64,000 bases of DNA from Asanoa hainanensis (lineage in GTDB: Bacteria; Actinomycetota; Actinomycetes; Mycobacteriales; Micromonosporaceae), in the NCBI RefSeq assembly GCF_900188485.1, contig NZ_FZPH01000008.1:1-64000 (forward strand), given 5' to 3'. Position 1 is the stretch's first letter, and the number at the start of each line of letters is the position of its first letter. The translations under genes and the position numbers were made by a program. The notes under the pieces are model-generated. The model saw only the letters and a list, made by a program, of their open reading frames with translations. It did not search any database and had not been told where the DNA came from. Positions 1-58,225 of the stretch are shown here, piece by piece.

Positions 1-64
1 GATCATCGGTGGCCCAGTCGACACCGACCGTCACCGCTCGCGCCGCGCCGCCGTCATCAGTCAC
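1..64 (-). CDS. IS110-family-like transposase, N-terminal fragment (runs off the window)
   Basis: A GTG at 64-62 opens a frame on the minus strand that reads MTDDGGAARAVTVGVDWATD and continues past base 1. The segment V-G-V-D-W-A resembles the first strand of the RuvC-like DEDD fold that begins IS110 transposases, where this Asp is the first catalytic acid. Only 21 codons are visible, so the family cannot be proved; other RNase H-fold proteins share a similar strand. A purine-rich GGAGGAG (minus strand, about 80-74) lies 9-10 bases upstream as a ribosome binding site, which supports this start. Confidence 0.45.
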   Translation of the reverse strand, partial: MTDDGGAARAVTVGVDWATDD

Positions 65-316
65 ACTCAACCCAAGCTCCTCCGCTGCTCAACCCAGTGG
101 GGAAGCACCTGGTGGTTCGGGACATCACTGCCGGACGCTCATTGACGGGCGCTCAACGGCGCAGTAGCCCTGTTGCCAGTCGGGATGTCCCGGACCGCCA
201 GACCCCGCGGAAACTCCCGCAGGCCCTCAAACCGGGGGCTGCAACGGTTGGCGATGATCTAACGGCCCAGGTGCTACCCGGCCATCCAACAACCAGGCAG
301 CACCAGGATCACCCAA
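65..316 (-). ncRNA. candidate bridge RNA / structured left-end RNA of the IS110-like element
   Basis: This stretch has no supported gene. Read on the minus strand it can fold. GGGACATC (191-184) pairs with GATGTCCC (126-119). Directly inside, ACTGC (165-161) pairs with GCAGT (131-127), leaving an 18-nt one-sided internal loop and a 29-nt terminal loop. A second hairpin is GCGG-N6-CCGC (218-205). Stems with large internal loops between the element end and the transposase start are what IS110 bridge RNAs look like. Transcription and function are inferred; no covariation test was possible. Confidence 0.35.
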
Positions 317-317
317 T

Positions 318-345
318 GAGCAACGGTCGCGCCCACGACGAACCC
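318..345. repeat. truncated copy of an interspersed intergenic repeat at the element junction
   Basis: Bases 318-345 match the inverse of 58134-58161 at 27 of 28 positions and resemble 47211-47238. These are the outer ends of the two complete repeat copies in the window. Here the match stops abruptly at 317/318, exactly where the IS110-like left end begins. The simplest reading is that the element inserted into a copy of this repeat. Confidence 0.5.
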
Positions 346-398
346 GAGTCATCCTGCTCGTGACCTTCGAAGTGCGCTCGAAGGTAGGATCTGCGCCG

Positions 399-58144: not shown

Positions 58145-58225
58145 GGGCGCGACCGTCGCTCCCGCCGGGGAGCGCTCCGCTGCGCTGCGCTGCCAGGTCC
58201 GCGCTGGGGCGCGGTCACGGCACGA
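58145..58225 (-). repeat. interspersed repeat, complete copy B
   Basis: 81 bp, inverted relative to copy A (47152-47227), nearly identical apart from a 6-bp indel and a few changes. Its flank (58134-58145) continues into the sequence seen truncated at 318-345. Intergenic, before the membrane Sel1 gene. Confidence 0.85.

What the first reader, a model, noticed from the sequence alone, without database searches (positions are those of the whole stretch)
1..316. Bridge-RNA-like left end of an IS110-type element at the window edge
The minus strand carries GTG-started MTDDGGAARAVTVGVDWATD (first DEDD strand) preceded by about 250 nt without a gene but with a nested fold: an 8-bp helix GGGACATC/GATGTCCC enclosing ACTGC/GCAGT with an 18-nt one-sided loop. 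That is the layout of IS110 bridge RNAs, whose internal loops specify target and donor DNA. If true, this would be an RNA-guided recombination system in this genus.
Basis: partly seen in the sequence, partly recalled or inferred. Interest (0 to 1): 0.85.

Follow-up and report, generated by a model that had tools for sequence, protein, structure and literature searches.

The report
Left end of RNA-guided jumping gene
The window begins inside one of several copies of an IS110-type jumping gene whose upstream non-coding stretch has the marks of a bridge RNA that aims the element at a short repeat scattered through this genus; it looks like a new but ordinary member of a system described in 2024.

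Summary
Window 1-320 is the left end of an IS110-group insertion sequence cut by the contig edge: six left ends and five right ends lie at contig ends of this genome. The minus strand of about 318-71 carries a bridge RNA. Empty target sites fix the boundaries and give a CT core, as in IS621. All four guides can be read: LTG and RTG fit the flanking target 7 of 7, RDG fits the left end 7 of 7, LDG fits the right end with one bulge and one wobble. A covariance model built without the window finds it as its only hit in 64 kb (E 2.5e-17). The outer GGGACATC/GATGTCCC helix has compensatory changes; the inner ACTGC/GCAGT helix is not supported. Across actinobacterial relatives, target guides match their own flanks far better than permuted flanks. 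The target is an interspersed repeat with 48 free sites in this genome; all six insertions are in the GTTG subtype that the guide matches exactly. No RNA or activity was tested, and the middle of the transposase is missing from the assembly. New member of a known kind.

The parts
1..70 (-). First codons of the IS110 transposase (TTG start at 70-68 by comparison with relatives, or GTG at 64-62); runs off the contig
   Evidence: the C13 copy reads 30 aa MSVTDDGGAARAVRVGVDWATDDHAVCVMD and aligns with relatives at VDWA (first Asp of DEDD). Pfam: 22-aa window piece no match, 30-aa C13 piece PF01548 E 0.035, below cut-off
71..318 (-). Non-coding left end; predicted bridge RNA, transcribed 318 towards 71
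   Evidence: Conserved upstream of relatives' transposases; transcript ends not known
102..207 (-). Domain found by covariance model R1 (donor-binding loop and outer helices)
   Evidence: 99.3 bits, E 2.5e-17, only hit at E up to 1 in 64 kb; model built without the window
119..126 (-). 3' strand of the outer helix (RNA GAUGUCCC)
   Evidence: helix 2
184..191 (-). 5' strand of the outer helix (RNA GGGACAUC)
   Evidence: helix 2
149..162 (-). Tip hairpin of the donor-binding loop, GCGC/GCGC
   Evidence: 100% of cells paired, two-sided changes in 2 of 4 pairs
270..304 (-). 5' stem-loop GGTGCTGCC...GGGTAGCACC
   Evidence: Minimum-energy fold; no covariation test made
242..248 (-). Left target guide LTG, ACCGUUG
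   Evidence: Equals left flank ACCGTTG at 327-321; covariation in relatives
214..220 (-). Right target guide RTG, GCGGGAG
   Evidence: Complement of right flank CTCCCGC at the right ends; covariation in relatives
163..173 (-). Left donor guide LDG, ACAGGGC(U)ACU
   Evidence: Fits right end ACAGGACACT with one bulge and one wobble (by eye); C/T covariation in relatives
138..144 (-). Right donor guide RDG, CAAUGAG
   Evidence: Complement of the element's first bases CTCATTG at 320-314
319..320 (-). Core dinucleotide CT at the element/target junction
   Evidence: Left junctions, right junctions and empty sites compared
321..346 (.). Left half of the interspersed repeat that was the insertion target (left target ACCGTTG at 327-321 minus)
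   Evidence: Hits to 318-346 in this genome and in all five sister species searched; empty repeats
58151..58166 (+). Unoccupied copy of the target, GTCG subtype (GACCGTCGCTCCCGCC)

Best explanation
Window 1-320 is the left end of an IS110-group insertion sequence with at least six copies in this genome. Its DEDD recombinase gene runs leftwards. Upstream of it on the same strand, about 250 nt of leader hold a bridge RNA: a 5' stem-loop, a target-binding loop (LTG ACCGUUG, RTG GCGGGAG) and a donor-binding loop (LDG ACAGGGC(U)ACU, RDG CAAUGAG). After excision as a circle, the TTGACA beside the right end would lie upstream of the left end and help to drive the RNA. One loop would pair with the CT junction of the circle, the other with an interspersed host repeat (ACCGTTG-CT-CCCGC), and the recombinase would exchange strands at CT. 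Shown here by sequence comparison: boundaries, core, guide complementarity, covariation of structure and guides, repeated insertion at one base of the repeat. Inferred from the published IS621 and ISEc21 work: transcription, circle formation, RNA binding, catalysis.
For: Left end at 6 contig ends and right end at 5 contig ends of one genome, with identical junctions in 6 of 6 and 5 of 5. A full-length relative matches PF01548 and PF02371 and aligns with the IS621 transposase. Empty repeats in sister species read ..ACCGTTGCTCCCGCC.. or ..ACCGTCGCTCCCGCC... Model R1, built without the window, finds 102-207 minus at E 2.5e-17. Structure: 102 cells with two-sided changes against 40.7 in shuffles, 0 of 500. 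RTG/right flank: 38 of 49 match at all four positions after CTC, permuted mean 7.4, maximum 17 in 20,000; each distinct pair once, 12 of 23, permuted mean 1.1, maximum 6. LTG/left flank: 17 of 65 reach 6 of 7, permuted mean 2.4, maximum 9 in 5,000. RDG/left end: 45 of 49 fit. LDG/right end: 55 of 58 identical over 7 nt. Free target sites: 48 against 1 for the reversed pattern. All six insertions are in GTTG sites, against 16 of 48 free sites, one-sided Fisher p 0.0029.
Against: About residues 31-259 of this genome's own transposase are in no contig, so intactness is unknown; the PF01548 search of the genome found 0 matches at E 0.001. The match to IS621 is weak (whole protein 8.7e-7; the two stretches only 0.32 and 0.034). 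Rfam gave no relevant match. The single fold is unremarkable. The LTG does not match the second core base (CA, not CU), and the LDG needs a bulge. 11 of 49 RTG pairs and 48 of 65 LTG pairs miss the criterion, 4 of 49 RDG pairs do not fit, 5 of 62 relatives examined lack TTGACA near the gene's end, and no -10 box was found by eye. 'Further pair types' in the structure count is not above shuffles (108 of 500). Relatives share ancestry, so permutations overstate independence. No RNA data.
Confidence: 0.94

Rival explanations
1. A real IS110 left end, but the conserved structure is a leader that regulates expression of the transposase, and the protein alone chooses the target.
For: For ISPpu9, an IS inserted in REPs, two small RNAs and the 5'-UTR structure are reported to regulate the transposase (PMC8450116; only the search listing and start of the abstract seen).
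Against: Guide letters follow the flanking host DNA (RTG and LTG) and the element's own ends (RDG, LDG); a mere leader has no reason to do so. Regulation could exist in addition.
Confidence: 0.03
2. A correct IS110 element with a bridge RNA, but dead: the copies in this genome are remnants and the RNA is no longer used.
For: No whole transposase can be read from the assembly.
Against: Left-end copies are 98-99% identical over at least 99 bases, junctions are identical, and the sister species searched lack the element, all pointing to recent spread; the gap is what a collapsed repeat leaves behind.
Confidence: 0.12
3. The conserved left-end DNA is a protein-binding or promoter region, and its hairpins and guide matches are coincidence of high G+C and shared ancestry.
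For: Single-sequence fold only mildly better than shuffles; relatives are not independent.
Against: Two-sided compensatory changes, sliding controls at 20-44% paired against 89%, and guide/flank matches far above permuted pairings even with each distinct pair counted once.
Confidence: 0.01

Closest known systems
IS621 and its bridge RNA (IS110 group; Durrant et al. 2024, PMC11208160: abstract, sections 4-7 and 12, first part of section 43 read)
   Same: DEDD plus Transposase_20 recombinase; long left end with the RNA, very short right end; two internal loops with four guides in the same order and strand sense; CT core; insertion into repeated extragenic sequence
   Different: Distant protein, longer (414 aa in the tested relative against a 328-residue chain); different loop sequences; LDG with a bulge; LTG does not match the second core base
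ISEc21 and its seekRNA (IS110 family; Siddiquee et al. 2024, PMC11187229: abstract, sections 12 and 13 read)
   Same: RNA from the upstream non-coding region; short matches to both target strands, that of the bottom strand 5' to that of the top strand; promoter formed by joined ends; no target duplication
   Different: Another target; the short processed seekRNA form was not testable here
REP-targeting insertion sequences such as ISPa11, ISPpu9, ISPpu10 (Tobes and Pareja 2006, PMC1525189: abstract read)
   Same: Repeated insertion at a fixed base of a dispersed extragenic repeat
   Different: Other hosts and repeats; RNA guidance was unknown then

Membership tests
[quoted passage not shown]
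   Relative L003 matches at 1.5e-35. Own copies hold only the first 22-30 residues: C13 piece E 0.035; genome search 0 matches
IS110 group | C-terminal Transposase_20 domain (PF02371) with conserved Ser | tested here: met
   Own C20 fragment matches at 1.9e-16 and keeps the Ser of PSTRQSG that aligns with the Ser of IS621's ESG; that this Ser is catalytic is recalled
IS110 group | RNA in a left end much longer than the right end | tested here: met
   Left end about 248 nt; right end about 10 nt between stop codon and core; model hit upstream of the gene
IS110 group | Insertion at a short core without target duplication | tested here: met
   Left junctions, right junctions and empty sites share only CT/CTC; right and left ends of one copy could not be paired
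IS110 group | Circular intermediate | not testable with these tools
   Needs PCR or reads across the junction
Bridge RNA | Two loops with conserved secondary structure | tested here: met
   Donor domain. The target-binding loop was placed by its guides; its own helix was not tested for covariation
Bridge RNA | Two guides complementary to the target | tested here: met
   7 of 7 and 7 of 7 in the window; covariation
Bridge RNA | Two guides complementary to the element's ends | tested here: met
   RDG 7 of 7; LDG with one bulge and one wobble; covariation
Bridge RNA | Transcribed, bound by the recombinase, needed for recombination | not testable with these tools
   No RNA or biochemical data
IS1111 group | RNA in the right end | tested here: not met
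   Right end only about 10 nt; RNA domain upstream of the gene
IS1111 group | Sub-terminal inverted repeats of 7-17 bp | not tested
   No search for them was made

The most novel reading that the evidence does not exclude
Actinobacterial IS110 elements form a natural reprogramming series: on one RNA scaffold the target guides have been rewritten again and again to follow host repeats, and in this genome the element spreads only through the GTTG subtype of a genus-wide repeat (6 of 6), so that host drift to GTCG works as resistance to insertion.
Probability: 0.35. Interest if true: 0.5.

Novelty: new member of a known kind. Interest (0 to 1): 0.36.

Why it matters
It gives a bridge-RNA element from high-G+C actinobacteria with boundaries, core, target and four guides worked out, and dozens of relatives whose guides follow their flanks. 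Such natural guide/target pairs show how these recombinases are retargeted in nature and offer candidates for actinomycete genome engineering. The class itself is already known.

Tried and rejected
Rejected: DUF429 (RNase H-like) as the gene behind VGVDWATD: the one DUF429 match in this genome is elsewhere, on C20. Rejected: my first boundary guess, which put the junction several bases into the flank; the empty sites moved the core to CT. Rejected: inner helix ACTGC/GCAGT. Replaced: my first LDG reading without a bulge (note), after comparison with L071, whose guide ACAGGGCACU equals its right end ACAGGGCACT.

Led nowhere or failed: Rfam; a 3-mismatch genome pattern, which gave no more hits than its reversed control (187 against 232) and was replaced by a stricter one; my first scripts for locating guides, which found few loci or took wrong places, and the first register rule for the right flank, which misplaced CTTCTC and CTCTC cases (27 full matches of 48); one search uses a rule that does not look at the guide. 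In one search the RDG extraction was wrong and its table was discarded; redone by alignment columns.

Weak model hits in L021 (sister species G002, 24.4 bits, E 0.0027) and L010 (20.3 bits, E 0.017) were not followed. Literature: searches for actinobacterial bridge RNAs or this target showed no paper on them among the 15, 15 and 10 rows listed; many more papers held the terms and were not seen, so this is no proof of absence.

Full report
What is in the window. Base 1 of the window is base 1 of contig C16 of the host assembly. The first 320 or so bases recur at 98-99% identity at other contig ends: C13 start, both ends of C35, and, for the outer 99-101 bases only, C4 end and C30 start. A search of this genome with a full-length relative of the transposase finds C-terminal pieces at five more contig ends: C20, C22, C34, C41, C24 (C41 and C24 only at E 0.02 and 0.11, but with the same right-end DNA). 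The assembly thus breaks inside a multi-copy element, and about residues 31-259 of its protein are in no contig found.

The protein. The minus strand from 70 reads MSVTDDGGAARAVTVGVDWATDD; the C13 copy reads 30 residues. The 414-aa protein matches PF01548 at 1.5e-35 and PF02371 at 3.3e-16; this genome's own C20 fragment matches PF02371 at 1.9e-16. In the phmmer alignment with IS621 (8wt6, E 8.7e-7 for the whole protein, single stretches weak) the Asp, Glu, Asp, Asp and Ser positions line up; that they are catalytic is recalled. The own pieces keep the first Asp and the Ser. A PF01548 search of the genome gave 0 matches, as expected of so short an N-terminal piece.

Boundaries and core. Repeats without the element, in five sister species and in this genome, read for example CGTGGGCGCGACCGTTGCTCCCGCCGGGGATCGC (L015). 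Left junctions read ACCGTTG-CT-CATTGGG in 6 of 6 and right junctions TTGACACAGGACA-CT-CCCGCC in 5 of 5. What junctions and empty site share is CT (or CTC), so the core is CT, window 320-319. Upstream of the neighbouring gene, a NIF3 homologue (PF01784, 4.3e-70), the repeat stands without the element in the three sister-species loci looked at (L004, L013, L014).

The RNA. Of 80 loci with a related transposase (80 of 99 kept by the tool), 60 gave a left-end match at E 1e-4 lying wholly in the locus, 50 of them distinct. Forty-nine, window excluded, were aligned over the donor domain (L099 left out for a long insertion). Model R1 from that alignment has one hit at E up to 1 in the 64-kb window: 102-207 minus, 99.3 bits, E 2.5e-17. 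In 15 more sources it had strong hits in 11, and none in L124, L125 (which hold only the outer 100 bases), L116 and L118; L098, L103, L104, L107 and L108 among the 11 were not in the model. On A1 the structure has 89.0% of cells paired against 82.5% in shuffles and 20-44% when slid; 102 cells with two-sided changes against 40.7 (0 of 500); pairs with two-sided changes 13 against 8.9 (2 of 500); further pair types 30 against 28.3, not significant. The structure was chosen on the same alignment, which favours it in the sliding control. The outer helix has two-sided changes in 6 of 8 pairs.

Guides. In the window, LTG ACCGUUG equals the left flank (7 of 7); RTG GCGGGAG is the complement of the right flank CTCCCGC (7 of 7, core included); RDG CAAUGAG is the complement of the element's first bases CTCATTG; LDG ACAGGGC(U)ACU fits the right end ACAGGACACT with one bulge and one wobble. 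In relatives, donor loop and left end were located by pattern in 76 of 86 sequences. After setting aside 5 duplicate copies, 23 lacked a right guide or right flank by my patterns, leaving 48; with the hand-entered own pair, 49 were tested. Of these, 38 match at all four positions after CTC (permuted mean 7.4, maximum 17 in 20,000); each distinct pair once, 12 of 23 (mean 1.1, maximum 6). For the LTG, 17 of 65 reach 6 of 7 (mean 2.4, maximum 9 in 5,000; three registers allowed alike in real and permuted pairs). RDG and left end fit in 45 of 49 (5 CAATGAG with CTCATTG, 40 CAGTGAG with CTCACTG; exceptions L048, L075, L078, L088). LDG and right end are identical over 7 nt in 55 of 58 (43 ACAGGGC, 12 ATAGGGC); of the three others, L065 and L097 took a spurious TTGACA inside the gene and L061 differs. 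Near-identical copies were not removed except where distinct pairs are stated, and shared ancestry inflates all these contrasts.

Promoter. TTGACA lies just before the core at the right end, overlapping the transposase stop in this genome. In 62 of the 80 relatives (those I listed by hand) it occurs within -30 to +150 of the gene's end in 57, against 0 of 62 in one shuffle each. In a circle it would stand upstream of the left end, as described for IS621 and ISEc21 (PMC11208160 section 5, PMC11187229 section 12). I saw no good -10 box; this step is inferred.

Target. GACCGNNGCTCCCGCC occurs 48 times in this genome (reversed control 1) and 55, 56, 65, 72 and 97 times in five sister species (controls 1-3). 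In the other 55 genomes searched it is 0-2 except G028 (19), G035 (6) and G030 (4). Model R1 hits 3 of 41 genomes at E 0.001: this one (4 hits, all copies of the element), G011 and G020, and none of the five sister species (stricter filters); a weak hit in one of them (L021, 24.4 bits) was not followed. So the repeat is old in the genus and the element probably a recent arrival. Of the 48 free sites 16 are GTTG, 23 GTCG, 5 GATG, 3 GCCG and 1 GTAG (counted by eye); all six left junctions are GTTG (one-sided Fisher p 0.0029). This fits the LTG, which pairs fully with GTTG and only by wobble with GTCG, but six events are few and may not be independent.

Verdict. An IS110-group element with a bridge RNA: a new member of a known kind. 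Durrant et al. report predicted bridge RNAs in 85.7% of IS110s (section 12), and insertion into REPs has been described since 2006 (abstract of PMC1525189).

Noticed in passing
L080 (Kineococcus xinjiangensis) 2047-2154 and 2298-2405: Two equal-scoring copies of the bridge-RNA domain in tandem upstream of one transposase (92.8 bits each).
   Followed up: partly
L056, L058, L078 upstream of the transposase: The 5' part of the left end looks duplicated compared with other relatives.
   Followed up: no
L002 467-1534: The 355-aa transposase frame lacks part of the DEDD domain compared with L003; PF01548 is matched only from profile position 89 on.
   Followed up: no
L029 (G001:C4 near 1930000): Four hits of the target repeat at 81-bp spacing: the repeat also occurs in tandem.
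   Followed up: no
empty target repeats, e.g. L119, L122, L029: The repeat has conserved outer parts and a variable inner hairpin, like a REP or small non-autonomous element.
   Followed up: no
L071 (Symbioplanes lichenis) against L114 and the window: A close relative in which target guides and flanks have both changed (flanks GATCGCTG-CT-CACGCC, guides AUCGUUG and GCGUGAG): a natural retargeting.
   Followed up: partly
L021 1500-1607 (G002, sister species) and L010: Weak hits of the bridge-RNA model (24.4 and 20.3 bits), possibly remnants or distant relatives.
   Followed up: no
window 58151-58166: An unoccupied GTCG-subtype copy of the target repeat inside the window.
   Followed up: no
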